64,000 nt of DNA from Loxodes magnus (taxonomy: Eukaryota > Ciliophora > Karyorelictea > Loxodida > Loxodidae), in NCBI GenBank assembly GCA_946699065.1, contig CAMPDV010001194.1:1-64000 (forward strand), read 5' to 3'. The notes below the pieces were generated by a model. That model was given only the letters and a program-made list of their open reading frames with translations. It had not been told where the DNA came from and searched no databases. This document shows positions 1 through 64,000 of the stretch, one piece after another. Numbering within the stretch: position 1 is the first letter of the stretch; every line of letters starts with the position of its first letter. A program made the position numbers and the translations under genes.

Positions 1-240
1 ATGCTTATAGAAGTAATAAGTATTTAGAAAAGTCATGAAGTAAAGTAAGAAAAGAAGATAGAGTTTCAGTTTTAAGGAGTATGCTTATAGAAGTAATAAG
101 TATTTATAAAAGTGAAGAAGTAAAGTAAGAAAAGAAGATAGAATTTCAGTTTTAAGGAGTATGCTTTGAGAAGTAATAAGTATTTATAAAAGTGAAGAAG
201 TAAAGTAAGAAAAGAAGATAGAGTTTCAGTTTTAAGGAGT

Positions 241-319
241 ATGCTTATAGAAGTAATAAGTATTTAGAAAAGTGATGAAGTAAAGTAAGAAAAGAAGATA
301 GAGTTTCGTTTTAAGGAGT
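241..319 (+). repeat. First 79-bp monomer variant (TTTCG form)
   Basis: This copy is one base shorter than its neighbours because TTTCAGTTTT has become TTTCGTTTT. The next copy therefore starts at 320. Loss of the A creates a CpG, absent from the 80-bp consensus. The same deletion recurs throughout the window, so it is an old, amplified allele and not a sequencing slip. Each 79-bp copy also changes the reading frame by a different amount from an 80-bp copy. Confidence 0.93.
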
Positions 320-1036
320 ATGCTTATGGAAGTAATAAGTATTTAGAAAAGAGAAGAAGTAAAGTAAGAAAAGAAGATAGAGTTTCAGTTTTAAGGAGTA
401 TGCTTATAGAAGTAATAAGTATTTAGAAAAGAGAAGAAGTAAAGTAAGAAAAGAAGATAGAGTTTCAGTTTTAAGGAGTATGCTTTGAGAAGTAATAAGT
501 ATTTAGAAAAGTGATGAAGTAAAGTAAGAAAAGAAGATAGAGTTTCGTTTTAAGGAGTATGCTTATAGAAGTAATAAGTATTTAGAAAAGTGATGAAGTA
601 AAGTAAGAAAAGAAGATAGAGTTTCGTTTTAAGGAGTATGTTTTGAGAAGTAATAAGTTTTAGAAAAGTGAAGAAGTAAAGTAAGAAAAAAAGATAGAGT
701 TTCAGTTTTAAGGAGTATGCTTATAGAAGTAATAAGTATTTATAAAAGTGAAGAAGTAAAGTAAGAAAAGAAGATAGAGTTTCAGTTTTAAGGAGTATGC
801 TTATAGAAGTAATAAGTATTTAGAAAAGTGATGAAGTAAAGTAAGAAAAGAAGATAGAGTTTCAGTTTTAAGGAGTATGTTTTGAGAAGTAATAAGTATT
901 TAGAAAAGTGATGAAGTAAAGTAAGAAAAGAAGATTCAGTTTCAGTTTTAAGGAGTATGTTTTGAGAAGTAATAAGTATTTAGAAAAGTGATGAAGTAAA
1001 GTAAGAAAAGAAGATAGAGTTTCAGTTTTAAGGAGT

Positions 1037-1116
1037 ATGCTTATAGAAGTAATAAGTATTTAGAAAAGTGAAGAAGTAAAGTAAGAAAAGAAGATAGAGT
1101 TTCAGTTTTAAGGAGT
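1037..1116 (+). repeat. Representative 80-bp monomer
   Basis: A copy close to consensus, usable as the reference unit. Counted composition is A 37, G 19, T 22, C 2: 26% GC and 70% purine on this strand. Order of parts: head ATGCTTATAG (unit bases 1-10), AAGTAATAAGTATTTAG (11-27), a purine-rich middle (28-58) broken by isolated T, then ATAGAGTTTCAG (58-69) and the tail TTTTAAGGAGT (70-80). The only two C residues are at unit bases 4 and 67. This form contains no CpG. Nearly all variation between copies falls at unit bases 4-10, 17-19, 26-36, 41, 48-56, 60-64 and 66-69. Confidence 0.95.
1045..1090 (+). repeat. Internal duplication inside the monomer
   Basis: Unit bases 9-32 (1045-1068) and 36-54 (1072-1090) are copies of one shorter element. 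Both read AGAAGTAA, then AGTA, then AGAAAAG. In the first copy these blocks are separated by two extra bases (TA) and three extra bases (TTT); in the second they are contiguous. All 19 bases of the second copy match the first, and the offset is 27 bases. TGA separates the two copies. This suggests the 80-bp satellite grew from an older purine-rich element of about 20-27 bp; the 5 bp of length difference would be later insertions or deletions. Confidence 0.8.
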
Positions 1117-3110
1117 ATGTTTTGAGAAGTAATAAGTATTTAGAAAAGTGAAGAAGTAAAGTAAGAAAAGAAGATAGAGTTTCGTTTTAAGGAGTATGTT
1201 TTGAGAAGTAATAAGTATTTAGAAAAGTGAAGAAGTAAAGTAAGAAAAGAAGATAGAGTTTCGTTTTAAGGAGTATGCTTATAGAAGTAATAAGTATTTA
1301 GAAAAGAGAAGAAGTAAAGTAAGAAAAGAAGATAGAGTTTCAGTTTTAAGGAGTCTGCTTTGAGAAGTAATAAGTATTTATAAAAGTGAAGAAGTAAAGT
1401 AAGAAAAGAAGATAGAGTTTCGTTTTAAGGAGTATGCTTATAGAAGTAATAAGTATTTATAAAAGTGAAGAAGTAAAGTAAGAAAAGAAGATAGAGTTTC
1501 AGTTTTAAGGAGTATGCTTATAGAAGTAATAAGTATTTAGAAAAGTGATGAAGTAAAGTAAGAAAAGAAGATAGAGTTTCAGTTTTAAGGAGTATGCTTT
1601 GAGAAGTAATAAGTATTTAGAAAAGTGAAGAAGTAAAGTAAGAAAAGAAGATAGAGTTTCAGTTTTAAGGAGTATGCTTATGGAAGTAATAAGTATTTAG
1701 AAAAGTGAAGAAGTAAAGTAAGAAAAGAAGATAGAGTTTCAGTTTTAAGGAGTATGCTTATAGAAGTAATAAGTATTTATAAAAGTGAAGAAGTAAAGTA
1801 AGAAAAGAAGATAGAGTTTCAGTTTTAAGGAGTATGCTTATAGAAGTAATAAGAATTTAGAAAAGTGATGAAGTAAAGTAAGAAAAGAAGATAGAGTTTC
1901 GTTTTAAGGAATATGTTTTGAGAAGTAATAAGTATTTAGAAAAGTGATGAAGTAAAGTAAGAAAAGAAGATAGAGTTTCAGTTTTAAGGAGTATGCTTTG
2001 AGAAGTAATAAGTATTTAGAAAGGAGAAGAAGTAAAGTAAGAAAAAAAGATAGAGTTTCAGTTTTAAGGAGTATGCTTATAGAAGTAATAAGTATTTATA
2101 AAAGTGAAGAAGTAAAGTAAGAAAAGAAGATAGAGTTTCAGTTTTAAGGAGTATGCTTATAGAAGTAATAAGTATTTAGAAAAGTGATGAAGTAAAATAA
2201 GAAAAGAAGATAGAGTTTCAGTTTTAAGGAGTATGCTTATAGAAGTAATAAGTATTTAGAAAAGAGAAGAAGTAAAGTAAGAAAAGAAGATAGAGTTTCA
2301 GTTTTAAGGAGTATGCTTATAGAAGTAATAAGTATTTAGAAAAGTCATGAAGTAAAGTAAGAAAAAAAGATAGAGTTTCAGTTTTAAGGAGTATGCTTAT
2401 AGAAGTAATAAGTATTTAGAAAAGTCATGAAGTAAAGTAAGAAAAAAAGATAGAGTTTCAGTTTTAAGGAGTATGCTTATAGAAGTAATAAGTATTTAGA
2501 AAAGTGATGAAGTAAAGTAAGAAAAGAAGATAGAGTTTCGTTTTAAGGAGTATGTTTTGAGAAGTAATAAGTATTTAGAAAAGTGATGAAGTAAAGTAAG
2601 AAAAGAAGATAGAGTTTCAGTTTTAAGGAGTATGCTTTGAGAAGTAATAAGTATTTAGAAAGGAGAAGAAGTAAAGTAAGAAAAAAAGATAGAGTTTCAG
2701 TTTTAAGGAGTATGCTTATAGAAGTAATAAGTATTTAGAAAAGTGATGAAGTAAAGTAAGAAAAGAAGATAGAGTTTCAGTTTTAAGGAGTATGCTTTGA
2801 GAAGTAATAAGTATTTAGAAAGGAGAAGAAGTAAAGTAAGAAAAAAAGATAGAGTTTCAGTTTTAAGGAGTATGCTTATAGAAGTAATAAGTATTTAGAA
2901 AAGAGAAGAAGTAAAGTAAGAAAAGAAGATAGAGTTTCGTTTTAAGGAGTATGCTTATGGAAGTAATAAGTATTTAGAAAAGTGAAGAAGTAAAGTAAGA
3001 AAAGAAGATAGAGTTTCAGTTTTAAGGAGTATGTTTTGAGAAGTAATAAGTATTTAGAAAAGTGAAGAAGTAAAGTAAGAAAAAAAGATAGAGTTTCAGT
3101 TTTAAGGAGT

Positions 3111-4390
3111 ATGCTTTGAGAAGTAATAAGTATTTAGAAAAGTGAAGAAGTAAAGTAAGAAAAGAAGATAGAGTTTCAGTTTTAAGGAGTATGCTTATGG
3201 AAGTAATAAGTATTTAGAAAAGAGAAGAAGTAAAGTAAGAAAAGAAGATAGAGTTTCAGTTTTAAGGAGTATGCTTATAGAAGTAATAAGTATTTAGAAA
3301 AGTCATGAAGTAAAGTAAGAAAAAAAGATAGAGTTTCAGTTTTAAGGAGTATGCTTTGAGAAGTAATAAGTATTTAGAAAGGAGAAGAAGTAAAGTAAGA
3401 AAAAAAGATAGAGTTTCAGTTTTAAGGAGTATGCTTTGAGAAGTAATAAGTATTTAGAAAAGTGAAGAAGTAAAGTAAGAAAAGAAGATAGAGTTTCGTT
3501 TTAAGGAGTATGCTTATGGAAGTAATAAGTATTTAGAAAAGTGATGAAGTAAAGTAAGAAAAGAAGATAGAGTTTCAGTTTTAAGGAGTATGTTTTGAGA
3601 AGTAATAAGTATTTAGAAAAGTGAAGAAGTAAAGTAAGAAAAGAAGATAGAGTTTCAGTTTTAAGGAGTATGCTTATGGAAGTAATAAGTATTTAGAAAA
3701 GAGAAGAAGTAAAGTAAGAAAAGAAGATAGAATTTCAGTTTTAAGGAGTATGCTTATAGAAGTAATAAGTATTTATAAAAGTGAAGAAGTAAAGTAAGAA
3801 AAGAAGATAGAGTTTCAGTTTTAAGGAGTATGCTTTGAGAAGTAATAAGTATTTAGAAAAGTGAAGAAGTAAAGTAAGAAAAGAAGATAGAGTTTCAGTT
3901 TTAAGGAGTATGCTTATGGAAGTAATAAGTATTTAGAAAAGAGAAGAAGTAAAGTAAGAAAAGAAGATAGAGTTTCAGTTTTAAGGAGTATGCTTATAGA
4001 AGTAATAAGTATTTAGAAAAGTCATGAAGTAAAGTAAGAAAAAAAGATAGAGTTTCAGTTTTAAGGAGTATGCTTTGAGAAGTAATAAGTATTTAGAAAG
4101 GAGAAGAAGTAAAGTAAGAAAAAAAGATAGAGTTTCAGTTTTAAGGAGTATGCTTTGAGAAGTAATAAGTATTTAGAAAAGTGAAGAAGTAAAGTAAGAA
4201 AAGAAGATAGAGTTTCGTTTTAAGGAGTATGCTTATGGAAGTAATAAGTATTTAGAAAAGTGAAGAAGTAAAGTAAGAAAAGAAGATAGAGTTTCAGTTT
4301 TAAGGAGTATGTTTTGAGAAGTAATAAGTATTTAGAAAAGTGAAGAAGTAAAGTAAGAAAAAAAGATAGAGTTTCAGTTTTAAGGAGTAT
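3111..4390 (+). repeat. 9-monomer tandem HOR, period 719 bp
   Basis: A run of nine monomers starting at 3111 begins again at 3830. Shared order: CTTTGAG/GTGAAG, CTTATGG/GAGAAG, CTTATAG/GTCATG with AAAAAAAG, CTTTGAG/AAGGAGAAG with AAAAAAAG, CTTTGAG/GTGAAG with TTTCG, then CTTATGG. Period 719 is eight 80-bp units plus one 79-bp unit. The first copy is complete (3111-3829) and the second runs to about 4390. A GTGATG monomer near 3541 is GTGAAG in the second copy, and one second-copy monomer near 3720 has GAATTTCAG. This is a local tandem duplication between the two block A copies. Confidence 0.82.
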
Positions 4391-4468
4391 GCTTATAGAA
4401 GTAATAAGTATTTATAAAAGTGAAGAAGTAAAGTAAGAAAAGAAGATAGAGTTTCAGTTTTAAGGAGT

Positions 4469-7400
4469 ATGCTTATAGAAGTAATAAGTATTTAGAAAAG
4501 TGATGAAGTAAAGTAAGAAAAGAAGATAGAGTTTCGTTTTAAGGAGTATGCTTATGGAAGTAATAAGTATTTAGAAAAGAGAAGAAGTAAAGTAAGAAAA
4601 GAAGATAGAGTTTCAGTTTTAAGGAGTATGCTTATAGAAGTAATAAGTATTTAGAAAAGAGAAGAAGTAAAGTAAGAAAAGAAGATAGAGTTTCAGTTTT
4701 AAGGAGTATGCTTTGAGAAGTAATAAGTATTTAGTAAAGTGATGAAGTAAAGTAAGAAAAGAAGATAGAGTTTCGTTTTAAGGAGTATGCTTATAGAAGT
4801 AATAAGTATTTAGAAAAGTGATGAAGTAAAGTAAGAAAAGAAGATAGAGTTTCGTTTTAAGGAGTATGTTTTGAGAAGTAATAAGTATTTAGAAAAGTGA
4901 AGAAGTAAAGTAAGAAAAGAAGATAGAGTTTCAGTTTTAAGGAGTATGCTTATAGAAGTAATAAGTATTTATAAAAGTGAAGAAGTAAAGTAAGAAAAGA
5001 AGATAGAGTTTCAGTTTTAAGGAGTATGCTTATAGAAGTAATAAGTATTTATAAAAGTGAAGAAGTAAAGTAAGAAAAGAAGATAGAATTTCAGTTTTAA
5101 GGAGTATGCTTATAGAAGTAATAAGTATTTATAAAAGTGAAGAAGTAAAGTAAGAAAAGAAGATAGAGTTTCAGTTTTAAGGAGTATGCTTATAGAAGTA
5201 ATAAGTATTTAGAAAAGTGATGAAGTAAAGTAAGAAAAGAAGATAGAGTTTCAGTTTTAAGGAGTATGCTTATAGAAGTAATAAGTATTTAGAAAAGTGA
5301 AGAAGTAAAGTAAGAAAAGAAGATAGAGTTTCAGTTTTAAGGAGTATGTTTTGAGAAGTAATAAGTATTTAGAAAAGTGAAGAAGTAAAGTAAGAAAAGA
5401 AGATAGAGTTTCGTTTTAAGGAGTATGTTTTGAGAAGTAATAAGTATTTAGAAAAGTGAAGAAGTAAAGTAAGAAAAGAAGATAGAGTTTCGTTTTAAGG
5501 AGTATGCTTATAGAAGTAATAAGTATTTAGAAAAGAGAAGAAGTAAAGTAAGAAAAGAAGATAGAGTTTCAGTTTTAAGGAGTCTGCTTTGAGAAGTAAT
5601 AAGTATTTATAAAAGTGAAGAAGTAAAGTAAGAAAAGAAGATAGAGTTTCGTTTTAAGGAGTATGCTTATAGAAGTAATAAGTATTTATAAAAGTGAAGA
5701 AGTAAAGTAAGAAAAGAAGATAGAGTTTCAGTTTTAAGGAGTATGCTTATAGAAGTAATAAGTATTTAGAAAAGTGATGAAGTAAAGTAAGAAAAGAAGA
5801 TAGAGTTTCAGTTTTAAGGAGTATGCTTTGAGAAGTAATAAGTATTTAGAAAAGTGAAGAAGTAAAGTAAGAAAAGAAGATAGAGTTTCAGTTTTAAGGA
5901 GTATGCTTATGGAAGTAATAAGTATTTAGAAAAGAGAAGAAGTAAAGTAAGAAAAGAAGATAGAGTTTCAGTTTTAAGGAGTATGCTTATAGAAGTAATA
6001 AGTATTTATAAAAGTGAAGAAGTAAAGTAAGAAAAGAAGATAGAGTTTCAGTTTTAAGGAGTATGCTTATAGAAGTAATAAGAATTTAGAAAAGTGATGA
6101 AGTAAAGTAAGAAAAGAAGATAGAGTTTCAGTTTTAAGGAGTATGTTTTGAGAAGTAATAAGTATTTAGAAAAGTGATGAAGTAAAGTAAGAAAAGAAGA
6201 TAGAGTTTCAGTTTTAAGGAGTATGCTTTGAGAAGTAATAAGTATTTAGAAAGGAGAAGAAGTAAAGTAAGAAAAAAAGATAGAGTTTCAGTTTTAAGGA
6301 GTATGCTTATAGAAGTAATAAGTATTTATAAAAGTGAAGAAGTAAAGTAAGAAAAGAAGATAGAGTTTCAGTTTTAAGGAGTATGCTTATAGAAGTAATA
6401 AGTATTTAGAAAAGTGATGAAGTAAAATAAGAAAAAAAGATAGAGTTTCAGTTTTAAGGAGTATGCTTATAGAAGTAATAAGTATTTAGAAAAGAGAAGA
6501 AGTAAAGTAAGAAAAGAAGATAGAGTTTCAGTTTTAAGGAGTATGCTTTGAGAAGTAATAAGTATTTAGAAAGGAGAAGAAGTAAAGTAAGAAAAGAAGA
6601 TAGAGTTTCAGTTTTAAGGAGTATGCTTATAGAAGTAATAAGTATTTAGAAAAGTCATGAAGTAAAGTAAGAAAAAAAGATAGAGTTTCAGTTTTAAGGA
6701 GTATGCTTATAGAAGTAATAAGTATTTAGAAAAGTGATGAAGTAAAGTAAGAAAAGAAGATAGAGTTTCGTTTTAAGGAGTATGTTTTGAGAAGTAATAA
6801 GTATTTAGAAAAGTGATGAAGTAAAGTAAGAAAAGAAGATAGAGTTTCAGTTTTAAGGAGTATGCTTTGAGAAGTAATAAGTATTTAGAAAGGAGAAGAA
6901 GTAAAGTAAGAAAAAAAGATAGAGTTTCAGTTTTAAGGAGTATGCTTATAGAAGTAATAAGTATTTAGAAAAGTGATGAAGTAAAGTAAGAAAAGAAGAT
7001 AGAGTTTCAGTTTTAAGGAGTATGCTTTGAGAAGTAATAAGTATTTAGAAAGGAGAAGAAGTAAAGTAAGAAAAAAAGATAGAGTTTCAGTTTTAAGGAG
7101 TATGCTTATAGAAGTAATAAGTATTTAGAAAAGAGAAGAAGTAAAGTAAGAAAAGAAGATAGAGTTTCGTTTTAAGGAGTATGCTTATGGAAGTAATAAG
7201 TATTTAGAAAAGTGAAGAAGTAAAGTAAGAAAAGAAGATAGAGTTTCAGTTTTAAGGAGTATGTTTTGAGAAGTAATAAGTATTTAGAAAAGTGAAGAAG
7301 TAAAGTAAGAAAAAAAGATAGAGTTTCAGTTTTAAGGAGTATGTTTTGAGAAGTAATAAGTATTTAGAAAAGTGAAGAAGTAAAGTAAGAAAAGAAGATA

Positions 7401-7530
7401 GAGTTTCAGTTTTAAGGAGTATGCTTATGGAAGTAATAAGTATTTAGAAAAGAGAAGAAGTAAAGTAAGAAAAGAAGATAGAGTTTCAGTTTTAAGGAGT
7501 ATGCTTATAGAAGTAATAAGTATTTAGAAA
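4469..7530 (+). repeat. HOR block A, copy 2
   Basis: Second copy of the 53-monomer order seen at about 240-3290. It follows after a 1.2 kb stretch made of the 719-bp repeat. The correspondence ends near 7530-7610, where an extra GAGAAG monomer precedes the GTCATG monomer and the orders then diverge. It differs from copy 1 by scattered substitutions and by TTTCAG in place of TTTCG near 6130, which moves the offset from 4,229 to 4,230. Confidence 0.78.
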
Positions 7531-8039
7531 AGAGAAGAAGTAAAGTAAGAAAAGAAGATAGAGTTTCAGTTTTAAGGAGTATGCTTATAGAAGTAATAAG
7601 TATTTAGAAAAGTCATGAAGTAAAGTAAGAAAAAAAGATAGAGTTTCAGTTTTAAGGAGTATGCTTTGAGAAGTAATAAGTATTTAGAAAAGTGATGAAG
7701 TAAAGTAAGAAAAGAAGATAGAGTTTCGTTTTAAGGAGTATGCTTATGGAAGTAATAAGTATTTAGAAAAGTGAAGAAGTAAAGTAAGAAAAGAAGATAG
7801 AGTTTCAGTTTTAAGGAGTATGTTTTGAGAAGTAATAAGTATTTAGAAAAGTGAAGAAGTAAAGTAAGAAAAAAAGATAGAGTTTCAGTTTTAAGGAGTA
7901 TGCTTTGAGAAGTAATAAGTATTTAGAAAAGTGATGAAGTAAAGTAAGAAAAGAAGATAGAGTTTCGTTTTAAGGAGTATGCTTATGGAAGTAATAAGTA
8001 TTTAGAAAAGTGAAGAAGTAAAGTAAGAAAAGAAGATAG

Positions 8040-11000
8040 AGTTTCAGTTTTAAGGAGTATGCTTATAGAAGTAATAAGTATTTATAAAAGTGAAGAAGTA
8101 AAGTAAGAAAAGAAGATAGAGTTTCAGTTTTAAGGAGTATGCTTATAGAAGTAATAAGTATTTAGAAAAGTGAAGAAGTAAAGTAAGAAAAGAAGATAGA
8201 GTTTCGTTTTAAGGAGTATGTTTTGAGAAGTAATAAGTATTTAGAAAAGTGATGAAGTAAAGTAAGAAAAGAAGATAGAGTTTCAGTTTTAAGGAGTATG
8301 CTTATAGAAGTAATAAGTATTTATAAAAGTGAAGAAGTAAAGTAAGAAAAAAAGATAGAGTTTCAGTTTTAAGGAGTATGCTTATAGAAGTAATAAGTAT
8401 TTATAAAAGTGAAGAAGTAAAGTAAGAAAAGAAGATAGAATTTCAGTTTTAAGGAGTATGCTTTGAGAAGTAATAAGTATTTAGAAAAGTGAAGAAGTAA
8501 AGTAAGAAAAGAAGATAGAGTTTCAGTTTTAAGGAGTATGCTTATAGAAGTAATAAGTATTTATAAAAGTGAAGAAGTAAAGTAAGAAAAGAAGATAGAG
8601 TTTCAGTTTTAAGGAGTATGCTTATAGAAGTAATAAGTATTTAGAAAAGTCATGAAGTAAAGTAAGAAAAAAAGATAGAGTTTCAGTTTTAAGGAGTATG
8701 CTTATAGAAGTAATAAGTATTTATAAAAGTGAAGAAGTAAAGTAAGAAAAGAAGATAGAATTTCAGTTTTAAGGAGTATGCTTTGAGAAGTAATAAGTAT
8801 TTAGAAAAGTGAAGAAGTAAAGTAAGAAAAGAAGATAGAGTTTCAGTTTTAAGGAGTATGCTTATAGAAGTAATAAGTATTTAGAAAAGTGAAGAAGTAA
8901 AGTAAGAAAAGAAGATAGAGTTTCAGTTTTAAGGAGTATGTTTTGAGAAGTAATAAGTATTTAGAAAAGTGAAGAAGTAAAGTAAGAAAAGAAGATAGAA
9001 TTTCAGTTTTAAGGAGTATGCTTTGAGAAGTAATAAGTATTTAGAAAAGTGAAGAAGTAAAGTAAGAAAAGAAGATAGAGTTTCAGTTTTAAGGAGTATG
9101 CTTATAGAAGTAATAAGTATTTAGAAAAGTGAAGAAGTAAAGTAAGAAAAGAAGATAGAGTTTCAGTTTTAAGGAGTATGCTTATAGAAGTAATAAGTAT
9201 TTAGAAAAGTCATGAAGTAAAGTAAGAAAAGAAGATAGAGTTTCAGTTTTAAGGAGTATGCTTATAGAAGTAATAAGTATTTATAAAAGTGAAGAAGTAA
9301 AGTAAGAAAAGAAGATAGAATTTCAGTTTTAAGGAGTATGCTTATAGAAGTAATAAGTATTTATAAAAGTGAAGAAGTAAAGTAAGAAAAGAAGATAGAG
9401 TTTCAGTTTTAAGGAGTATGCTTTGAGAAGTAATAAGTATTTAGAAAGGAGAAGAAGTAAAGTAAGAAAAAAAGATAGAGTTTCAGTTTTAAGGAGTATG
9501 CTTATAGAAGTAATAAGTATTTATAAAAGTGAAGAAGTAAAGTAAGAAAAGAAGATAGAGTTTCAGTTTTAAGGAGTATGCTTATAGAAGTAATAAGTAT
9601 TTATAAAAGTGAAGAAGTAAAGTAAGAAAAGAAGATAGAGTTTCAGTTTTAAGGAGTATGCTTATAGAAGTAATAAGTATTTATAAAAGTGAAGAAGTAA
9701 AGTAAGAAAAGAAGATAGAGTTTCAGTTTTAAGGAGTATGTTTTGAGAAGTAATAAGTATTTAGAAAAGTGATGAAGTAAAGTAAGAAAAGAAGATAGAG
9801 TTTCAGTTTTAAGGAGTATGTTTTGAGAAGTAATAAGTATTTAGAAAAGTGATGAAGTAAAGTAAGAAAAGAAGATAGAGTTTCAGTTTTAAGGAGTATG
9901 CTTATAGAAGTAATAAGTATTTATAAAAGTGAAGAAGTAAAGTAAGAAAAGAAGATAGAGTTTCAGTTTTAAGGAGTATGCTTATAGAAGTAATAAGTAT
10001 TTAGAAAAGTGATGAAGTAAAGTAAGAAAAGAAGATAGAGTTTCGTTTTAAGGAGTATGTTTTGAGAAGTAATAAGTATTTAGAAAAGTGATGAAGTAAA
10101 GTAAGAAAAGAAGATAGAGTTTCAGTTTTAAGGAGTATGCTTTGAGAAGTAATAAGTATTTAGAAAGGAGAAGAAGTAAAGTAAGAAAAAAAGATAGAGT
10201 TTCAGTTTTAAGGAGTATGCTTATAGAAGTAATAAGTATTTATAAAAGTGAAGAAGTAAAGTAAGAAAAGAAGATAGAGTTTCAGTTTTAAGGAGTATGC
10301 TTATAGAAGTAATAAGTATTTAGAAAAGTCATGAAGTAAAGTAAGAAAAAAAGATAGAGTTTCAGTTTTAAGGAGTATGCTTATAGAAGTAATAAGTATT
10401 TATAAAAGAGAAGAAGTAAAGTAAGAAAAGAAGATAGAGTTTCAGTTTTAAGGAGTCTGCTTTGAGAAGTAATAAGTATTTAGAAAAGTGAAGAAGTAAA
10501 GTAAGAAAAGAAGATAGAGTTTCGTTTTAAGGAGTATGCTTATGGAAGTAATAAGTATTTAGAAAAGTGAAGAAGTAAAGTAAGAAAAGAAGATAGAGTT
10601 TCAGTTTTAAGGAGTATGCTTATAGAAGTAATAAGTATTTAGAAAAGTGAAGAAGTAAAGTAAGAAAAGAAGATAGAGTTTCAGTTTTAAGGAGTATGCT
10701 TTGAGAAGTAATAAGTATTTAGAAAAGTGATGAAGTAAAGTAAGAAAAGAAGATAGAGTTTCGTTTTAAGGAGTATGCTTATGGAAGTAATAAGTATTTA
10801 GAAAAGAGAAGAAGTAAAGTAAGAAAAGAAGATAGAGTTTCAGTTTTAAGGAGTATGCTTTGAGAAGTAATAAGTATTTAGAAAAGTCATGAAGTAAAGT
10901 AAGAAAAAAAGATAGAGTTTCAGTTTTAAGGAGTATGCTTATAGAAGTAATAAGTATTTATAAAAGTGAAGAAGTAAAGTAAGAAAAGAAGATAGAATTT

Positions 11001-11395
11001 CAGTTTTAAGGAGTATGCTTTGAGAAGTAATAAGTATTTAGAAAAGTGAAGAAGTAAAGTAAGAAAAGAAGATAGAGTTTCAGTTTTAAGGAGTATGCTT
11101 ATAGAAGTAATAAGTATTTATAAAAGTGAAGAAGTAAAGTAAGAAAAGAAGCTAGAGTTTCAGTTTTAAGGAGTATGCTTATAGAAGTAATAAGTATTTA
11201 GAAAAGTGAAGAAGTAAAGTAAGAAAAGAAGATAGAGTTTCGTTTTAAGGAGTATGTTTTGAGAAGTAATAAGTATTTAGAAAAGTGATGAAGTAAAGTA
11301 AGAAAAGAAGATAGAGTTTCAGTTTTAAGGAGTATGCTTATAGAAGTAATAAGTATTTAGAAAAGTGAAGAAGTAAAGTAAGAAAAGAAGATAGA
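8040..11395 (+). repeat. HOR block B, copy 1 (period 3,355 bp, 42 monomers)
   Basis: The variant order from about 8040 to 9420 recurs at offset 3,355 (11396 onward). From 9421 to about 11190 it recurs at offset 3,915. The rare AGTCTG head at 10454 recurs at 14369. Period 3,355 is 42 monomers with five 79-bp units, so this segment is poor in the short form. A substitution GATAGAG to GCTAGAG near 11151 is private to this copy. Confidence 0.82.
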
Positions 11396-21550: not shown

Positions 21551-21859
21551 GTTTTAAGGAGTATGTTTTGAGAAGTAATAAGTATTTAGAAAAGAGAAGA
21601 AGTAAAGTAAGAAAAGAAGATAGAGTTTCGTTTTAAGGAGTATGCTTATAGAAGTAATAAGTATTTATAAAAGTGAAGAAGTAAAGTAAGAAAAGAAGAT
21701 AGAATTTCAGTTTTAAGGAGTATGCTTTGAGAAGTAATAAGTATTTAGAAAAGTGAAGAAGTAAAGTAAGAAAAGAAGATAGAGTTTCGTTTTAAGGAGT
21801 ATGCTTTGAGAAGTAATAAGTATTTATAAAAGTGAAGAAGTAAAGTAAGAAAAGAAGAT

Positions 21860-54062: not shown

Positions 54063-54302
54063 ATGTTTTGAGAAGTAATAAGTATTTAGAAAAGTGATGA
54101 AGTAAAGTAAGAAAAGAAGATTCAGTTTCAGTTTTAAGGAGTATGCTTTGAGAAGTAATAAGTATTTATAAAAGTGATGAAGTAAAGTAAGAAAAGAAGA
54201 TAGAGTTTCAGTTTTAAGGAGTATGCTTATAGAAGTAATAAGTATTTAGAAAAGTGAAGAAGTAAAGTAAGAAAAGAAGATAGAGTTTCAGTTTTAAGGA
54301 GT
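54063..54302 (+). repeat. 240-bp trimer module (GATTCAG type), single copy
   Basis: Three monomers: TTTTGAG/TAGAAAAG/GTGATG with GATTCAG; CTTTGAG/TATAAAAG/GTGATG; CTTATAG/TAGAAAAG/GTGAAG. The same trimer is amplified in tandem at 57568-58206 and is a building block of the 1,593-bp HOR. Confidence 0.78.
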
Positions 54303-56613
54303 ATGCTTTGAGAAGTAATAAGTATTTAGAAAAGTGATGAAGTAAAGTAAGAAAAGAAGATAGAATTTCAGTTTTAAGGAGTATGCTTTGAGAAGTAGTA
54401 AGTATTTATAAAAGTGAAGAAGTAAAGTAAGAAAAGAAGATAGAGTTTCAGTTTTAAGGAGTATGTTTTGAGAAGTAATAAGTATTTAGAAAAGAGAAGA
54501 AGTAAAGTAAGAAAAGAAGATAGAGTTTCAGTTTTAAGGAGTATGTTTTGAGAAGTAATAAGTATTTAGAAAAGTGATGAAGTAAAGTAAGAAAAGAAGA
54601 TAGAGTTTCAGTTTTAAGGAGTATGCTTATAGAAGTAATAAGTATTTATAAAAGTGAAGAAGTAAAGTAAGAAAAGAAGATAGAGTTTCGTTTTAAGGAG
54701 TATGCTTATGGAAGTAATAAGTATTTAGAAAAGTGATGAAGTAAAGTAAGAAAAGAAGATAGAGTTTCAGTTTTAAGGAGTATGCTTATAGAAGTAATAA
54801 GTATTTAGAAAAGTGATGAAGTAAAGTAAGAAAAGAAGATAGAGTTTCAGTTTTAAGGAGTATGTTTTGAGAAGTAATAAGTATTTAGAAAAGAGAAGAA
54901 GTAAAGTAAGAAAAGAAGATAGAGTTTCGTTTTAAGGAGTATGTTTTGAGAAGTAATAAGTATTTAGAAAAGTGATGAAGTAAAGTAAGAAAAGAAGATT
55001 CAGTTTCAGTTTTAAGGAGTATGCTTATAGAAGTAATAAGTATTTAGAAAAGTGAAGAAGTAAAGTAAGAAAAGAAGATAGAATTTCAGTTTTAAGGAGT
55101 ATGCTTTGAGAAGTAATAAGTATTTAGAAAAGTGAAGAAATAAAGTAAGAAACGAAGATAGAATTTCAGTTTTAAGGAGTATGCTTTGAGAAGTAATAAA
55201 TATTTATAAAAGTGAAGAAGTAAAGTAAGAAAAGAAGATAGAATTTCAGTTTTAAGGAGTATGTTTTGAGAAGTAATAAGTATTTATAAATGAGAAGAAG
55301 TAAAGTAAGAAAAGAAGATAGAGTTTCAGTTTTAAGGAGTATGTTTTGAGAAGTAATAAGTATTTATAAAAGTGAAGAAGTAAAGTAAGAAAAAAAGATA
55401 GAGTTTCAGTTTTAAGGAGTATGCTTATAGAAGTAATAAGTATTTAGAAAAGAGAAGAAGTAAAGTAAGAAAAGAAGATAGAGTTTCGTTTTAAGGAGTA
55501 TGCTTTGAGAAGTAATAAGTATTTAGAAAAGTGAAGAAGTAAAGTAAGAAAAGAAGATAGAGTTTCAGTTTTAAGGAGTATGCTTTGAGAAGTAATAAGT
55601 ATTTATAAAAGTGAAGAAGTAAAGTAAGAAAAGAAAATAGAGTTTCGTTTTAAGGAGTATGTTTTGAGAAGTAATAAGTATTTAGAAAAGTGAAGAAGTA
55701 AAGTAAGAAAAGAAGATAGAGTTTCAGTTTTAAGGAGTATGCTTTGAGAAGTAATAAGTATTTAGAAAAGTGATGAAGTAAAGTAAGAAAAGAAGATAGA
55801 GTTTCGTTTTAAGGAGTATGCTTTGAGAAGTAATAAGTATTTAGAAAAGTGAAGAAGTAAAGTAAGAAAAGAAGATAGAGTTTCAGTTTTAAGGAGTATG
55901 CTTATGGAAGTAATAAGTATTTAGAAAAGTGAAGAAGTAAAGTAAGAAAAGAAGATAGAGTTTCGTTTTAAGGAGTATGTTTTGAGAAGTAATAAGTATT
56001 TAGAAAAGTGATGAAGTAAAGTAAGAAAAGAAGATAGAGTTTCAGTTTTAAGGAGTATGCTTATAGAAGTAATAAGTATTTAGAAAAGTGAAGAAGTAAA
56101 GTAAGAAAAGAAGATTCAGTTTCAGTTTTAAGGAGTATGCTTTGAGAAGTAATAAGTATTTATAAAAGTGAAGAAGTAAAGTAAGAAAAAAAGATAGAAT
56201 TTCAGTTTTAAGGAGTATGCTTATAGAAGTAATAAGTATTTAGAAAAGTGAAGAAGTAAAGTAAGAAAAGAAGATAGAGTTTCGTTTTAAGGAGTATGTT
56301 TTGAGAAGTAATAAGTATTTAGAAAAGTGATGAAGTAAAGTAAGAAAAGAAGATAGAATTTCAGTTTTAAGGAGTATGCTTATAGAAGTAATAAGTATTT
56401 AGAAAAGTGAAGAAGTAAAGTAAGAAAAGAAGATAGAGTTTCAGTTTTAAGGAGTATGTTTTGAGAAGTAATAAGTATTTAGAAAAGTCAAGAAATAAAG
56501 TAAGAAAAGAAGATAGAATTTCGTTTTAAGGAGTATGCTTTGAGAAGTAATAAGTATTTATAAAAGTGAAGAAGTAAAGTAAGAAAAGAAGATAGAGTTT
56601 CGTTTTAAGGAGT

Positions 56614-58206
56614 ATGTTTTGAGAAGTAATAAGTATTTAGAAAAGTGAAGAAGTAAAGTAAGAAAAGAAGATAGAGTTTCAGTTTTAAGGAGTATGTTTT
56701 GAGAAGTAATAAGTATTTAGAAAAGAGAAGAAGTAAAGTAAGAAAAGAAGATAGAGTTTCAGTTTTAAGGAGTATGCTTATGGAAGTAATAAGTATTTAT
56801 AAAAGTGAAGAAGTAAAGTAAGAAAAGAAGATTCAGTTTCAGTTTTAAGGAGTATGCTTTGAGAAGTAATAAGTATTTATAAAAGTGATGAAGTAAAGTA
56901 AGAAAAGAAGATAGAGTTTCAGTTTTAAGGAGTATGCTTATGGAAGTAATATGTATTTATAAAAGTGAAGAAGTAAAGTAAGAAAAGAAGATAGAGTTTC
57001 GTTTTAAGGAGTATGCTTATGGAAGTAATATGTATTTATAAAAGTGAAGAAGTAAAGTAAGAAAAGAAGATAGATTTTCGTTTTAAGGAGTATGCTTATA
57101 GAAGTAATAAGTATTTAGAAAAGTGATGAAATAAAGTAAGAAAAGAAGATAGAGTTTCGTTTTAAGGAGTATGCTTATAGAAGTAATAAGTATTTAGAAA
57201 AGAGAAGAAGTAAAGTAAGAAAAGAAGATAGAGTTTCAGTTTTAAGGAGTATGTTTTGAGAAGTAATAAGTATTTAGAAAAGTCAAGAAGTAAAGTAAGA
57301 AAAGAAGATAGAGTTTCGTTTTAAGGAGTATGTTTTGAGAAGTAATAAGTATTTAGAAAAGTGAAGAAGTAAAGTAAGAAAAGAAGATAGAGTTTCGTTT
57401 TAAGGAGTATGTTTTGAGAAGTAATAAGTATTTAGAAAAGTGAAGAAGTAAAGTAAGAAAAGAAGATAGAGTTTCAGTTTTAAGGAGTATGTTTTGAGAA
57501 GTAATAAGTATTTAGAAAAGAGAAGAAGTAAAGTAAGAAAAGAAGATAGAGTTTCGTTTTAAGGAGTATGTTTTGAGAAGTAATAAGTATTTAGAAAAGT
57601 GATGAAGTAAAGTAAGAAAAGAAGATTCAGTTTCAGTTTTAAGGAGTATGCTTTGAGAAGTAATAAGTATTTATAAAAGTGATGAAGTAAAGTAAGAAAA
57701 GAAGATAGAGTTTCAGTTTTAAGGAGTATGCTTATAGAAGTAATAAGTATTTAGAAAAGTGAAGAAGTAAAGTAAGAAAAGAAGATAGAGTTTCAGTTTT
57801 AAGGAGTATGTTTTGAGAAGTAATAAGTATTTAGAAAAGTGATGAAGTAAAGTAAGAAAAGAAGATTCAGTTTCAGTTTTAAGGAGTATGCTTTGAGAAG
57901 TAATAAGTATTTATAAAAGTGATGAAGTAAAGTAAGAAAAGAAGATAGAGTTTCAGTTTTAAGGAGTATGCTTATAGAAGTAATAAGTATTTAGAAAAGT
58001 GAAGAAGTAAAGTAAGAAAAGAAGATAGAGTTTCGTTTTAAGGAGTATGTTTTGAGAAGTAATAAGTATTTAGAAAAGTGATGAAGTAAAGTAAGAAAAG
58101 AAGATTCAGTTTCAGTTTTAAGGAGTATGCTTTGAGAAGTAATAAGTATTTATAAAAGTGATGAAGTAAAGTAAGAAAAGAAGATAGAGTTTCAGTTTTA
58201 AGGAGT
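56614..58206 (+). repeat. HOR block F, copy 1 (period 1,593 bp, 20 monomers)
   Basis: First of about 2.4 head-to-tail copies of a 20-monomer unit, seven of whose monomers are 79 bp. The monomer bearing AGATAGATTTTCG lies at 57068, 58661 and 60254, exactly 1,593 apart each time. It is the most regular HOR in the window. Its right part contains the GATTCAG trimer two and a half times (starts 57568, 57808, 58047). Confidence 0.9.
57568..58206 (+). repeat. GATTCAG trimer in tandem (2.7 copies)
   Basis: Trimers start at 57568, 57808 and 58047 (periods 240 and 239). The last has two monomers only and is cut by the start of block F copy 2. A similar set lies in copy 2 (GATTCAG near 59217, 59457, 59696). 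This is a repeat within a repeat within a repeat: 80-bp unit, 240-bp trimer, 1,593-bp HOR. Confidence 0.85.
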
Positions 58207-59799
58207 ATGTTTTGAGAAGTAATAAGTATTTAGAAAAGTGAAGAAGTAAAGTAAGAAAAGAAGATAGAGTTTCAGTTTTAAGGAGTATGTTTTGAGAAGT
58301 AATAAGTATTTAGAAAAGAGAAGAAGTAAAGTAAGAAAAGAAGATAGAGTTTCAGTTTTAAGGAGTATGCTTATGGAAGTAATAAGTATTTATAAAAGTG
58401 AAGAAGTAAAGTAAGAAAAGAAGATTCAGTTTCAGTTTTAAGGAGTATGCTTTGAGAAGTAATAAGTATTTATAAAAGTGATGAAGTAAAGTAAGAAAAG
58501 AAGATAGAGTTTCAGTTTTAAGGAGTATGCTTATGGAAGTAATATGTATTTATAAAAGTGAAGAAGTAAAGTAAGAAAAGAAGATAGAGTTTCGTTTTAA
58601 GGAGTATGCTTATGGAAGTAATATGTATTTATAAAAGTGAAGAAGTAAAGTAAGAAAAGAAGATAGATTTTCGTTTTAAGGAGTATGCTTATAGAAGTAA
58701 TAAGTATTTAGAAAAGTGATGAAATAAAGTAAGAAAAGAAGATAGAGTTTCGTTTTAAGGAGTATGCTTATAGAAGTAATAAGTATTTAAAAAAGAGAAG
58801 AAGTAAAGTAAGAAAAGAAGATAGAGTTTCAGTTTTAAGGAGTATGTTTTGAGAAGTAATAAGTATTTAGAAAAGTCAAGAAGTAAAGTAAGAAAAGAAG
58901 ATAGAGTTTCGTTTTAAGGAGTATGTTTTGAGAAGTAATAAGTATTTAGAAAAGTGAAGAAGTAAAGTAAGAAAAGAAGATAGAGTTTCGTTTTAAGGAG
59001 TATGTTTTGAGAAGTAATAAGTATTTAGAAAAGTGAAGAAGTAAAGTAAGAAAAGAAGATAGAGTTTCAGTTTTAAGGAGTATGTTTTGAGAAGTAATAA
59101 GTATTTAGAAAAGAGAAGAAGTAAAGTAAGAAAAGAAGATAGAGTTTCGTTTTAAGGAGTATGTTTTGAGAAGTAATAAGTATTTAGAAAAGTGATGAAG
59201 TAAAGTAAGAAAAGAAGATTCAGTTTCAGTTTTAAGGAGTATGCTTTGAGAAGTAATAAGTATTTATAAAAGTGATGAAGTAAAGTAAGAAAAGAAGATA
59301 GAGTTTCAGTTTTAAGGAGTATGCTTATAGAAGTAATAAGTATTTAGAAAAGTGAAGAAGTAAAGTAAGAAAAGAAGATAGAGTTTCAGTTTTAAGGAGT
59401 ATGCTTTGAGAAGTAATAAGTATTTATAAAAGTGAAGAAGTAAAGTAAGAAAAGAAGATTCAGTTTCAGTTTTAAGGAGTATGCTTTGAGAAGTAATAAG
59501 TATTTATAAAAGTGATGAAGTAAAGTAAGAAAAGAAGATAGAGTTTCAGTTTTAAGGAGTATGCTTATAGAAGTAATAAGTATTTAGAAAAGTGAAGAAG
59601 TAAAGTAAGAAAAGAAGATAGAGTTTCGTTTTAAGGAGTATGTTTTGAGAAGTAATAAGTATTTAGAAAAGTGATGAAGTAAAGTAAGAAAAGAAGATTC
59701 AGTTTCAGTTTTAAGGAGTATGCTTTGAGAAGTAATAAGTATTTATAAAAGTGATGAAGTAAAGTAAGAAAAGAAGATAGAGTTTCAGTTTTAAGGAGT
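58207..59799 (+). repeat. HOR block F, copy 2
   Basis: Second 1,593-bp copy. Differences from copy 1: TATTTAAAAAAGAG near 58786 (a private G to A change), and a CTTTGAG/TATAAAAG/GTGAAG monomer near 59401 where copy 1 has TTTTGAG/TAGAAAAG/GTGATG, without change of length. The very low divergence indicates recent amplification. Confidence 0.9.
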
Positions 59800-60405
59800 A
59801 TGTTTTGAGAAGTAATAAGTATTTAGAAAAGTGAAGAAGTAAAGTAAGAAAAGAAGATAGAGTTTCAGTTTTAAGGAGTATGTTTTGAGAAGTAATAAGT
59901 ATTTAGAAAAGAGAAGAAGTAAAGTAAGAAAAGAAGATAGAGTTTCAGTTTTAAGGAGTATGCTTATGGAAGTAATAAGTATTTATAAAAGTGAAGAAGT
60001 AAAGTAAGAAAAGAAGATTCAGTTTCAGTTTTAAGGAGTATGCTTTGAGAAGTAATAAGTATTTATAAAAGTGATGAAGTAAAGTAAGAAAAGAAGATAG
60101 AGTTTCAGTTTTAAGGAGTATGCTTATGGAAGTAATATGTATTTATAAAAGTGAAGAAGTAAAGTAAGAAAAGAAGATAGAGTTTCGTTTTAAGGAGTAT
60201 GCTTATGGAAGTAATATGTATTTATAAAAGTGAAGAAGTAAAGTAAGAAAAGAAGATAGATTTTCGTTTTAAGGAGTATGCTTATAGAAGTAATAAGTAT
60301 TTAGAAAAGTGATGAAATAAAGTAAGAAAAGAAGATAGAGTTTCGTTTTAAGGAGTATGCTTATAGAAGTAATAAGTATTTAGAAAAGAGAAGAAGTAAA
60401 GTAAG
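59800..60405 (+). repeat. HOR block F, copy 3 (partial)
   Basis: Matches the first eight or so monomers of the unit, including the AGATAGATTTTCG monomer at 60254. It then diverges: AAACGAAG/GAATTTCAG appears at about 60409 where copies 1 and 2 have AAAAGAAG/GAGTTTCAG. A further AGATAGATTTTCG monomer at 60571 begins a short echo of the same part (60571-60830). Confidence 0.85.
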
Positions 60406-63300
60406 AAACGAAGATAGAATTTCAGTTTTAAGGAGTATGCTTTGAGAAGTAATAAGTATTTAGAAAAGTCAAGAAGTAAAGTAAGAAAAGAAGATAGAGT
60501 TTCGTTTTAAGGAGTATGTTTTGAGAAGTAATAAGTATTTAGAAAAGTCAAGAAATAAAGTAAGAAAAGAAGATAGATTTTCGTTTTAAGGAGTATGCTT
60601 ATAGAAGTAATAAGTATTTAGAAAAGTGATGAAATAAAGTAAGAAAAGAAGATAGAGTTTCGTTTTAAGGAGTATGCTTATAGAAGTAATAAGTATTTAG
60701 AAAAGAGAAGAAGTAAAGTAAGAAAAGAAGATAGAGTTTCAGTTTTAAGGAGTATGTTTTGAGAAGTAATAAGTATTTAGAAAAGTCAAGAAGTAAAGTA
60801 AGAAAAGAAGATAGAGTTTCAGTTTTAAGGAGTATGCTTATAGAAGTAATAAGTATTTAGAAAAGTGAAGAAGTAAAGTAAGAAAAGAAGATAGAATTTC
60901 AGTTTTAAGGAGTATGTTTTGAGAAGTAATAAGTATTTAGAAAAGTGAAGAAGTAAAGTAAGAAAAGAAGATAGAATTTCAGTTTTAAGGAGTATGCTTA
61001 TAGAAGTAATAAGTATTTAGAAAAGTGATGAAATAAAGTAAGAAACGAAGATAGAATTTCAGTTTTAAGGAGTATGCTTATGGAAGTAATATGTATTTAT
61101 AAAAGTGATGAAGTAAAGTAAGAAAAGAAGATAGAGTTTCAGTTTTAAGGAGTATGCTTATAGAAGTAATAAGTATTTAGAAAAGTCAAGAAGTAAAGTA
61201 AGAAAAGAAGATAGAGTTTCAGTTTTAAGGAGTATGCTTATGGAAGTAATAAGTATTTAGAAAAGTGAAGAAGTAAAGTAAGAAAAGAAGATAGAGTTTC
61301 GTTTTAAGGAGTATGCTTATGGAAGTAATAAGTATATAGAAAAGTCAAGAAGTAAAGTAAGAAAAGAAGATAGAGTTTCAGTTTTAAGGAGTATGCTTAT
61401 GGAAGTAATATGTATTTATAAAAGTGATGAAGTAAAGTAAGAAAAGAAGATAGAGTTTCAGTTTTAAGGAGTATGCTTATGGAAGTAATAAGTATTTAGA
61501 AAAGTCAAGAAGTAAAGTAAGAAAAGAAGATAGAGTTTCAGTTTTAAGGAGTATGTTTTGAGAAGTAATAAGTATTTAGAAAAGTGAAGAAGTAAAGTAA
61601 GAAAAGAAGATAGAGTTTCAGTTTTAAGGAGTATGTTTTGAGAAGTAATAAGTATTTAGAAAAGTGAAGAAGTAAAGTAAGAAAAGAAGATAGAGTTTCG
61701 TTTTAAGGAGTATGTTTTGAGAAGTAATAAGTATTTAGAAAAGAGAAGAAGTAAAGTAAGAAAAGAAGATAGAGTTTCGTTTTAAGGAGTATGCTTATGG
61801 AAGTAATAAGTATTTATAAAAGTGAAGAAGTAAAGTAAGAAAAGAAGATAGAATTTCAGTTTTAAGGAGTATGCTTATAGAAGTAATAAGTATTTAGAAA
61901 AGAGAAGAAGTAAAGTAAGAAAAGAAGATAGAGTTTCGTTTTAAGGAGTATGCTTTGAGAAGTAATGAGTATTTATAAAAGTGAAGAAGTAAAGTAAGAA
62001 AAGAAGATAGAGTTTCGTTTTAAGGAGTATGTTTTGAGAAGTAATAAGTATTTAGAAAAGAGAAGAAGTAAAGTAAGAAAAGAAGATAGAGTTTCGTTTT
62101 AAGGAGTATGTTTTGAGAAGTAATAAGTATTTAGAAAAGAGAAGAAGTAAAGTAAGAAAAGAAGATAGAGTTTCGTTTTAAGGAGTATGCTTTGAGAAGT
62201 AATAAGTATTTATAAAAGTGAAGAAGTAAAGTAAGAAAAGAAGATAGAGTTTCGTTTTAAGGAGTATGTTTTGAGAAGTAATAAGTATTTAGAAAAGAGA
62301 AGAAGTAAAGTAAGAAAAGAAGATAGAGTTTCGTTTTAAGGAGTATGTTTTGAGAAGTAATAAGTATTTAGAAAAGTGAAGAAGTAAAGTAAGAAAAGAA
62401 GATAGAGTTTCGTTTTAAGGAGTATGCTTTGAGAAGTAATAAGTATTTAGAAAAGTGATGAAGTAAAGTAAGAAAAGAAGATAGAGTTTCAGTTTTAAGG
62501 AGTATGCTTATAGAAGTAATAAGTATTTAGAAAAGTGATGAAGTAAAGTAAGAAAAGAAGATAGAGTTTCAGTTTTAAGGAGTATGTTTTGAGAAGTAAT
62601 AAGTATTTAGAAAAGTGATGAAGTAAAGTAAGAAAAGAAGATAGAATTTCAGTTTTAAGGAGTATGCTTATAGAAGTAATAAGTATTTAGAAAAGTGAAG
62701 AAGTAAAGTAAGAAAAGAAGATAGAGTTTCAGTTTTAAGGAGTATGCTTATGGAAGTAATAAGTATTTAGAAAAGTGAAGAAGTAAAGTAAGAAAAGAAG
62801 ATAGAGTTTCGTTTTAAGGAGTATGCTTTGAGAAGTAATAAGTATTTATAAAAGTGAAGAAGTAAAGTAAGAAAAGAAGATAGAATTTCAGTTTTAAGGA
62901 GTATGCTTATGGAAGTAATAAGTATTTAGAAAAGAGAAGAAGTAAAGTAAGAAAAGAAGATAGAGTTTCAGTTTTAAGGAGTATGCTTATAGAAGTAATA
63001 AGTATTTAGAAAAGTGAAGAAGTAAAGTAAGAAAAGAAGATAGAGTTTCAGTTTTAAGGAGTATGCTTATGGAAGTAATAAGTATTTAGAAAAGTGAAGA
63101 AGTAAAGTAAGAAAAGAAGATAGAGTTTCGTTTTAAGGAGTATGTTTTGAGAAGTAATAAGTATTTAGAAAAGTGATGAAGTAAAGTAAGAAAAGAAGAT
63201 TCAGTTTCGTTTTAAGGAGTATGCTTTGAGAAGTAATAAGTATTTAGAAAAGTGATGAAGTAAAGTAAGAAAAGAAGATAGAATTTCAGTTTTAAGGAGT
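60406..63300 (+). repeat. Irregular monomer region at the right
   Basis: Satellite with no long HOR that I could follow. Monomers with CTTATGG/AATATGTAT/TATAAAAG/GTGATG lie at about 61078 and 61393, each near a GTCAAG monomer. One copy near 61961 has AGTAATGAGTAT. A run of 79-bp units lies inside. No gene or other feature is present. Confidence 0.75.
61871..62423 (+). repeat. Seven consecutive 79-bp monomers
   Basis: Monomer starts fall at 61871, 61950, 62029, 62108, 62187, 62266 and 62345, and the next at 62424: exactly 7 x 79 bp. Each has TTTCG. TTTTGAG/GAGAAG units alternate with CTTTGAG/TATAAAAG units in part of the run. Elsewhere 79- and 80-bp units are mixed. The short form thus exists as a clean local tandem. 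Confidence 0.88.
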
Positions 63301-63698
63301 ATGCTTATAGAAGTAATAAGTATTTATAAAAGTGAAGAAGTAAAGTAAGAAAAAAAGATAGAGTTTCAGTTTTAAGGAGTATGCTTATGGAAGTAATAAG
63401 TATTTAGAAAAGTGAAGAAGTAAAGTAAGAAAAGAAGATAGAGTTTCAGTTTTAAGGAGTATGCTTATGGAAGTAATAAGTATTTAGAAAAGAGAAGAAG
63501 TAAAGTAAGAAAAGAAGATAGAGTTTCAGTTTTAAGGAGTATGTTTTGAGAAGTAATAAGTATTTATAAAAGTGAAGAAGTAAAGTAAGAAAAGAAGATA
63601 GAGTTTCGTTTTAAGGAGTATGCTTTGAGAAGTAATAAGTATTTATAAAAGTGATGAAGTAAAGTAAGAAAAGAAGATAGAGTTTCGTTTTAAGGAGT
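63301..63698 (+). repeat. 5-monomer cassette, distant copy
   Basis: The same 398-bp order as at 27146-27543, about 24 kb beyond the last other copy. It lies next to a GAAAATAGAG monomer (near 63911) whose local order (CTTTGAG/TATAAAAG, then TTTTGAG/GTGAAG) is also seen near 55.56-55.72 kb. The cassette may continue a further block beyond the right edge of the window. Confidence 0.78.
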
Positions 63699-64000
63699 AT
63701 GTTTTGAGAAGTAATAAGTATTTAGAAAAGTGATGAAGTAAAGTAAGAAAAGAAGATAGAGTTTCGTTTTAAGGAGTATGCTTTGAGAAGTAATAAGTAT
63801 TTAGAAAAGTGAAGAAGTAAAGTAAGAAAAGAAGATAGAGTTTCAGTTTTAAGGAGTATGCTTTGAGAAGTAATAAGTATTTATAAAAGTGAAGAAGTAA
63901 AGTAAGAAAAGAAAATAGAGTTTCGTTTTAAGGAGTATGTTTTGAGAAGTAATAAGTATTTAGAAAAGTGAAGAAGTAAAGTAAGAAAAGAAGATAGAGT

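What the first reader, a model, noticed from the sequence alone, without database searches (positions are those of the whole stretch)
1..64000. Unbroken satellite array of at least 64 kb that I cannot assign to a known family
Seen: every base fits a 79/80-bp unit, in one orientation, with no transposon, gene or inversion. Known: arrays of this kind are typical of eukaryotic centromeric or pericentromeric heterochromatin. Inference: this may be the main satellite of its genome. The unit is short for a centromeric satellite, many of which are near 150-180 bp, which makes it worth naming.
Basis: partly seen in the sequence, partly recalled or inferred. Interest (0 to 1): 0.7.

Follow-up and report, generated by a model that had tools for sequence, protein, structure and literature searches.

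The report
Outward-pointing satellite at contig ends
The window is a long, ordinary kind of tandem DNA repeat; in its own genome (a large protist, probably a ciliate) relatives of it sit at the ends of many of the longest contigs, nearly always pointing outward, so it looks more like DNA near chromosome ends than like a plain centromere array.

Summary
The array is real: 802 head-to-tail units (577 of 80 bp, 223 of 79, one 78, one 81) fill the window in one orientation. Its genome is held: 705.7 Mb, 7,843 contigs; the contig has 127,857 bases and is satellite wherever I read it. L3 and tubulin genes with in-frame TAA/TAG point to a protist reading TAR as Gln, probably a ciliate. No named match was found, but Dfam, Repbase and eukaryote genomes could not be searched. 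Of 59 ends of long contigs, 27 carry the family: 24 outward, 3 inward; the 17 closest are all outward. Internal one-orientation arrays would give equal numbers. On 6 of 6 scored contigs an 853-bp repeat lies distal and reaches the contig's last base; five anchored proximal flanks share DNA. Best reading: a polar chromosome-end satellite growing by duplication of 1-4 kb blocks. Inverted arrays about an 853-bp core are not excluded. The genome-wide telomere search did not complete.

The parts
1..64000 (+). Satellite array, 802 complete units of 78-81 bp and a 64-base tail, one orientation
1037..1116 (+).
1064..1094 (+). 31-bp purine-rich core (unit columns 28-58) kept better than the rest between 8 of 8 related satellites
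   Evidence: not protected inside the window (p 0.16)
1117..1195 (+). Example of the 79-bp form (TTTCGTTTT; A of column 68 missing)
1..20000 (+). More uniform domain (pairs 95.6% identical)
   Evidence: between-domain identity 94.6%
20000..24000 (+). Zone where allele sets change
24000..64000 (+). More varied domain (pairs 94.0% identical); 79-bp form commoner
26588..29374 (+). 35-unit block, first copy of a tandem duplication
   Evidence: 0.11% divergence to the block at 29375; longest exact repeat 1,818 bp
29375..32161 (+). 35-unit block, second copy (end computed from the 2,787-base lag)
46341..47614 (+). 16-unit stretch repeated at a lag of 15 units
56614..58764 (+). 27-unit stretch repeated at a lag of 20 units

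Best explanation
A polar satellite near chromosome ends (subtelomeric) in a protist that reads TAA and TAG as glutamine, probably a ciliate. SHOWN: the array, its abundance, its place at contig ends, its outward polarity, shared DNA in the flanks inside it and an 853-bp tandem repeat outside it. INFERRED: from inside out a chromosome end reads single-copy DNA, a flank with WD40-coding remnants and AT-rich minisatellites, an array of the 80-bp family (about 56 kb on C23, over 100 kb on C1194) with its G-rich strand running 5'->3' outward, the 853-bp repeat, and then a telomere that was not assembled. It codes for nothing. It most likely acts as heterochromatic spacer next to the end. Its length is kept by recombination between same-polarity arrays: tandem duplication and loss of blocks of about 15-60 units by unequal exchange or break-induced replication, plus short exchange within units. 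The 31-bp core shared by related satellites is the candidate recognition site.
For: 24 of 27 satellite-bearing contig ends point outward (binomial p 5e-5), 17 of 17 among the closest; any internal array in one orientation leaves one outward and one inward end. The 853-bp repeat is distal and reaches the contig's first or last base on 6 of 6 scored contigs, satellite just inside it and outward. Flanks of C5, C17, C18, C23, C29 match in all 10 pairs, same orientation. Contigs C9, C14 and C16 carry outward members at both ends. Block duplication: 20 diagonal repeats at lags 15-140 units, changing lag along the array, more and longer ones in the next 50 kb; within-unit exchange: 61 of 91 column pairs show all four combinations and linkage falls with distance. 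Core: 8 of 8 relatives.
Against: No telomere-type repeat in 72 loci, 244,936 bases, and the genome-wide telomere search did not complete. Three ends are inward (C15 end, C26 start, C29 end; diverged members) and the ten diverged members alone are 7 of 10 outward, p 0.34. The score cut of 200 was set after seeing the data. Other tandem arrays also end contigs, so contig ends mark assembly breaks, not necessarily chromosome ends. Only 6 of 156 candidate places of the 853-bp repeat were scored. C17 and C5 flanks share mainly minisatellite with the others. The core is not protected inside the window. No chromatin, FISH or read data.
Confidence: 0.55

Rival explanations
1. Macro-dyad: arrays are internal and inverted about a core (the 853-bp repeat or nothing), as in regional centromeres with inverted outer repeats. 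Seen from each arm the satellite then also points away from unique DNA.
For: Gives the same polarity and the same order of repeats. C4250 runs + then - with arms 99.4% alike over 4 kb.
Against: C4250 may be a foldback read; none of the 6 contigs with the 853-bp repeat crosses it to a second satellite array; C9, C14 and C16 are bounded by outward members at both ends at only 1.6-2.0 Mb, which would need a core at every such end.
Confidence: 0.22
2. Germline-limited boundary DNA: in a ciliate micronucleus the arrays border segments that are cut out or rearranged in the somatic nucleus, with no role at true chromosome ends.
For: TAR=Gln code and ciliate-like alpha-tubulin. In Tetrahymena germline telomeres lie in micronucleus-limited DNA (PMC13368176, passages).
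Against: That G000 is germline DNA was not tested; no somatic assembly or breakage signal was compared; internal borders would still give both polarities unless cutting is polar.
Confidence: 0.1
3. One reading: a plain internal centromeric or pericentromeric array in one orientation.
For: Long, homogeneous, abundant, transposon-free.
Against: Predicts equal outward and inward contig ends; 24 against 3 seen. Does not explain the fixed flank and distal repeat. CENP-B core matches best 6 of 9, below all 20 shuffles at 7-8; that matters only for lineages with CENP-B.
Confidence: 0.09
4. Assembly product: inflated, collapsed or misjoined contig.
For: One sister contig is a near-perfect foldback; where read, C1194 has no unique anchor.
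Against: 171 distinct unit types and no exact repeat over 1,818 bp in the window, so long reads could resolve it; 48,308 copies of the 30-mer, on several contigs anchored in non-satellite DNA. The length of this one contig stays unproved.
Confidence: 0.04

Closest known systems
Plasmodium subtelomeric repeats in fixed order, TARE/Rep20 (recalled, no call)
   Same: AT-rich tandem repeat beside other repeats in a fixed order shared by many chromosome ends
   Different: Unit 80 against about 21 bp, other sequence, no telomere seen here, host reads TAR as Gln
Tetrahymena germline chromosome ends (PMC13368176, passages)
   Same: TAR=Gln ciliate; germline ends carry special sequence next to the telomere
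   Different: There telomeres are G4T3/G4T2 repeats beside micronucleus-limited DNA; here no such repeat in 244,936 fetched bases and two tandem repeats instead
Mus caroli 79-bp satellite (PMC13371928 and PMC8122249, passages)
   Same: Unit length, homogeneity
   Different: It carries a CENP-B box variant and is proposed to be centromeric; here the box is absent. Its letters were not available, so no alignment was made
Plant and animal centromeric satellites (PMC4053949, passages)
   Same: Long arrays, multimer structure frequent, lengths down to 92 bp (soybean)
   Different: Outward polarity at contig ends and the distal 853-bp repeat
Macro-dyad satellite regions of Tribolium madens (PMC13081366, search listing only)
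   Same: Possible inverted arrangement of long arrays (my rival reading)
   Different: Unrelated organism; no sequence comparison made; inversion here rests on one contig that may be an artefact

Membership tests
Satellite DNA | Long head-to-tail array of a non-coding unit with concerted variation | tested here: met
   802 units, 171 types, block duplications, no coding signal by table 11 or code 6
Subtelomeric satellite | Constant polarity towards the chromosome end | tested here: met
   24 of 27 outward at contig ends, 17 of 17 closest; contig ends stand in for chromosome ends
Subtelomeric satellite | Same flanking order on many ends | tested here: met
   Proximal flanks 10 of 10 pairs among 5 contigs (C3 flank not reached); distal 853-bp repeat 6 of 6 scored contigs of 156 candidate places
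Subtelomeric satellite | Physical link to telomeric repeats | tested here: inconclusive
   None in 72 loci, 244,936 bases. Genome-wide search did not complete:
Centromeric satellite | CENH3/CENP-A chromatin | not testable with these tools
   no chromatin data
Centromeric satellite | Single internal array per chromosome, so equal outward and inward contig ends if in one orientation | tested here: not met
   24 against 3; an inverted arrangement would escape this test
CENP-B-box satellite (alpha, mouse minor, Mus caroli 79 bp) | CENP-B box with its nine essential bases (motif recalled) | tested here: not met
   Best 6 of 9 at 220 sites; 20 of 20 base shuffles reach 7 or 8
Fixed higher-order-repeat satellite | One constant multimer period over the array | tested here: not met
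   Best local lags change: 53, 49/42, 56, 35/60, 37, 15, 20 units
Ciliate genome | TAA/TAG read as Gln | tested here: met
   L3 with 2 TAG and 1 TAA in frame; the 30 best of 150 tubulin matches hold TAA/TAG and no TGA, most weaker ones also hold TGA. The code also occurs outside ciliates
Ciliate genome | Closest relatives of conserved proteins are ciliate | tested here: inconclusive
   Alpha-tubulin best to PDB 6u0h (recalled: Tetrahymena) by a small margin; L3 best to vertebrate chains

The most novel reading that the evidence does not exclude
The 80-bp family and the distal 853-bp repeat are themselves the maintained ends of this protist's chromosomes, at least in one of its nuclei: terminal complex repeats kept long by recombination between same-polarity blocks, without short telomeric repeats. 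The near-perfect foldback contig would then be a fused or closed end.
Probability: 0.1. Interest if true: 0.75.

Novelty: new member of a known kind. Interest (0 to 1): 0.4.

Why it matters
It turns a guess (centromere) into a testable picture of chromosome ends by a cheap argument, contig-end polarity. If right, it gives a probable ciliate with a changed genetic code a map of its ends (flank, 80-bp family, 853-bp repeat) and a FISH probe for many of them, and offers a series of related satellites of 75-107 bp that keep one 31-bp core while the rest changes, a good system for asking what a satellite must keep. As a kind of sequence it is ordinary.

Tried and rejected
Look-ups without a match: GTDB contigs, IMG/VR (6, 40), phages, plasmids, Rfam, strings in PMC full text (14; one search listed 26 papers, none on satellites by title). 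Dfam, Repbase and eukaryote genomes are not on hand.

Literature on 79/80-bp or ciliate satellites: listings. led to Mus caroli.

Considered and dropped: coding repeat; CENP-B box; hairpin function (four DNA folds, z -1.74, -0.25, -1.47, -0.02); 10-bp AA/TT phasing (133 of 300 shuffles as strong); inner duplication in the unit (25 of 200 shuffles as good); a protected motif inside the window (common variants p 0.47 and 0.98, any variant p 1.00 and 0.93). A guess of a Gigaspora-like fungus (note) was dropped after the TAR=Gln result.

Not obtained: species, telomere, read-level checks. COX1 did not complete.
Full report
OBSERVATION. The window is one tandem array from first base to last: TRF period 80, 802.8 copies; my segmentation 802 full units, 577 of 80 bp, 223 of 79, one 78, one 81, and a 64-base tail. 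There are 171 distinct unit sequences, 70 seen once; 34 of 80 columns never vary, 55 have at most four exceptions. The + strand has GC skew of about +0.8 throughout and the unit is 70% purine. No inverted repeat, tRNA, Rfam family or ORF over 40 aa; with TAA/TAG as Gln open runs reach 412 codons, below base shuffles.

HOW THE ARRAY GROWS. Neighbouring units are hardly more alike than random ones (94.58% against 94.41%; identical neighbours 3.0% against 1.9% expected). Yet exact runs of 10 to 22 units recur at lags of 15-95 units (10 of 57 runs of four or more), and 20 near-identical diagonals of 7-46 units lie at lags of 15-140 units. The cleanest is a 35-unit tandem duplication at 26588-29374/29375-32161, 0.11% diverged. 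The next 50 kb of the contig hold exact runs of 39 and 38 units. The preferred lag changes along the array, so there is no fixed higher-order unit. In a simple simulation (two replicates, two mutation rates, three block sizes) only blocks of 15-60 units removed the likeness of neighbours; no setting matched the number of unit types and the longest run together. Linkage between columns falls with distance inside the unit (Spearman -0.33, p 0.001, 91 pairs; columns 4, 8 and 61 left out because they change together with neighbours) and 61 of 91 pairs show all four combinations, so units also exchange short pieces. Allele sets change at 20-24 kb: pairs are 95.6% alike before, 94.0% after, 94.6% between. 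Of 249 CpG, 221 come from the one-base loss that makes the 79-bp form; units without A at column 68 rise from 6-22% per block before 24 kb to 28-46% after (leaving out the last, two-unit block).

THE GENOME. The window is G000:C1194:1-64000, assembly of 705,730,643 bases in 7,843 contigs. C1194 has 127,857 bases; the 53,857 further bases that I read are the same array, same orientation (114001-124000 not read). The 30-mer occurs 25,261 times on + and 23,047 on -; 514 of 802 window units carry it. Scaled: about 75,000 units, 6 Mb, 0.85% (inference).

THE ORGANISM. L3 on C117 is full length with two TAG and one TAA in frame, read as Q by code 6. Of 150 scored tubulin matches the best 30 hold TAA and some TAG but no TGA; most weaker ones also hold TGA and may be decayed copies. 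An alpha-tubulin matches PDB 6u0h best (1001 bits), then 8g3d, 7miz, 5ubq, 6u42; that 6u0h and 5ubq are Tetrahymena, 7miz Toxoplasma and 6u42 Chlamydomonas is recalled. L3 did not favour ciliates. So TAR=Gln is well supported, ciliate likely, species unknown.

WHERE THE SATELLITE LIES. I scored 59 contig ends: the starts of C1-C35 (C7 reads N) and the ends of C1-C6, C8-C24 and C29. 27 carry the family: 24 outward, 3 inward (C15 end, C26 start, C29 end); 31 none; 1 N. The closest (score 200 or more, cut set afterwards) are 17 of 17 outward; the others 7 of 10. C23's start is the 853-bp repeat and counts as none, though outward satellite follows it. An internal array, whichever way it runs, leaves one outward and one inward contig end; the count therefore argues for terminal arrays or inverted pairs. 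C9, C14 and C16 carry outward members at both ends.

BOTH SIDES OF THE ARRAY. Inside: flanks of C5, C17, C18, C23 and C29 match in all 10 pairs, same orientation; C18, C23 and C29 share about 1.7 kb at 81-83%, C5 and C17 share only shorter, minisatellite-rich parts with the others; C3's flank was not reached. The shared block holds broken WD40 repeats on C18 (Pfam PF00400, E 7e-23 and 9e-23). Outside: on C23 the array stops at about 3.4 kb and four copies of an 852/853-bp repeat fill the rest. The genome search scored 6 of 156 candidate places; on 6 of 6 contigs (C23, C4094, C5180, C3215, C4927, C5210) the repeat reaches the contig's first or last base, with outward satellite just inside. C23's array, read only at its two ends with 30-mer hits listed between, spans about 56 kb.

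RELATIVES AND A CORE. Contig ends carry relatives with units of 75-107 bp. Eight aligned with the window unit keep 31 columns better than the rest in 8 of 8: 77-100% against 47-88%. Caveats: several were recognised through that stretch, and inside the window the core varies about as often as the rest (9 of 31 columns against 14 of 49; mean minor fraction 0.024 against 0.047, p 0.16).

MECHANISM. Shown: array, block duplications, polarity, order. Inferred: end position, spacer role, growth by unequal exchange or break-induced replication, core as recognition site. The main rival, an inverted array about an 853-bp core, predicts the same polarity; C4250, a 99.4% foldback over 4 kb, may be a piece of it or a read artefact.

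VERDICT. 'No known family' holds only within what I could search. A new member of a known kind, moderately interesting for its polarity, its fixed order and its host.

Noticed in passing
L028 (G000:C4250:14001-20000): Satellite runs + then -, the two arms 99.4% alike over 4 kb: foldback read, inverted duplication or chromosome-end fusion.
   Followed up: partly
L021 (G000:C23:1-3389); C4094, C5180, C3215, C4927, C5210: Tandem repeat of 852-854 bp, always distal to the satellite and running to the contig end on the 6 contigs scored.
   Followed up: partly
G000:C64, C237, C441, C629 and others: Very many tubulin genes in clusters: 150 matches scored of 258 candidates, with TAA/TAG in frame.
   Followed up: partly
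L033 (C4 start), L066 (C18 start), L074 (C4 end), L075 (C6 end): Long tandem WD40-like coding repeats end several contigs; L033 is about 6 kb of them with frameshifts (by eye).
   Followed up: no
L031 (C1 start), L065 (C17 end): An unrelated tandem repeat of 79-89 bp, with a TTTACACTGGATGTCTGGG-like stretch, ends both contigs.
   Followed up: no
L047 (G000:C20:1-1200): Start of C20 looks by eye like a reverse-transcriptase (LINE-type) reading frame on the minus strand; not searched.
   Followed up: no
L077 (C15 end), L088 to L092 and L084 (C26 start), L069 (C29 end): The three inward-pointing satellites are diverged members; C15 end and C26 start share one unit of about 89 bp (of the other loci named here C31 and C32 starts are outward, C33-C35 carry none).
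   Followed up: no
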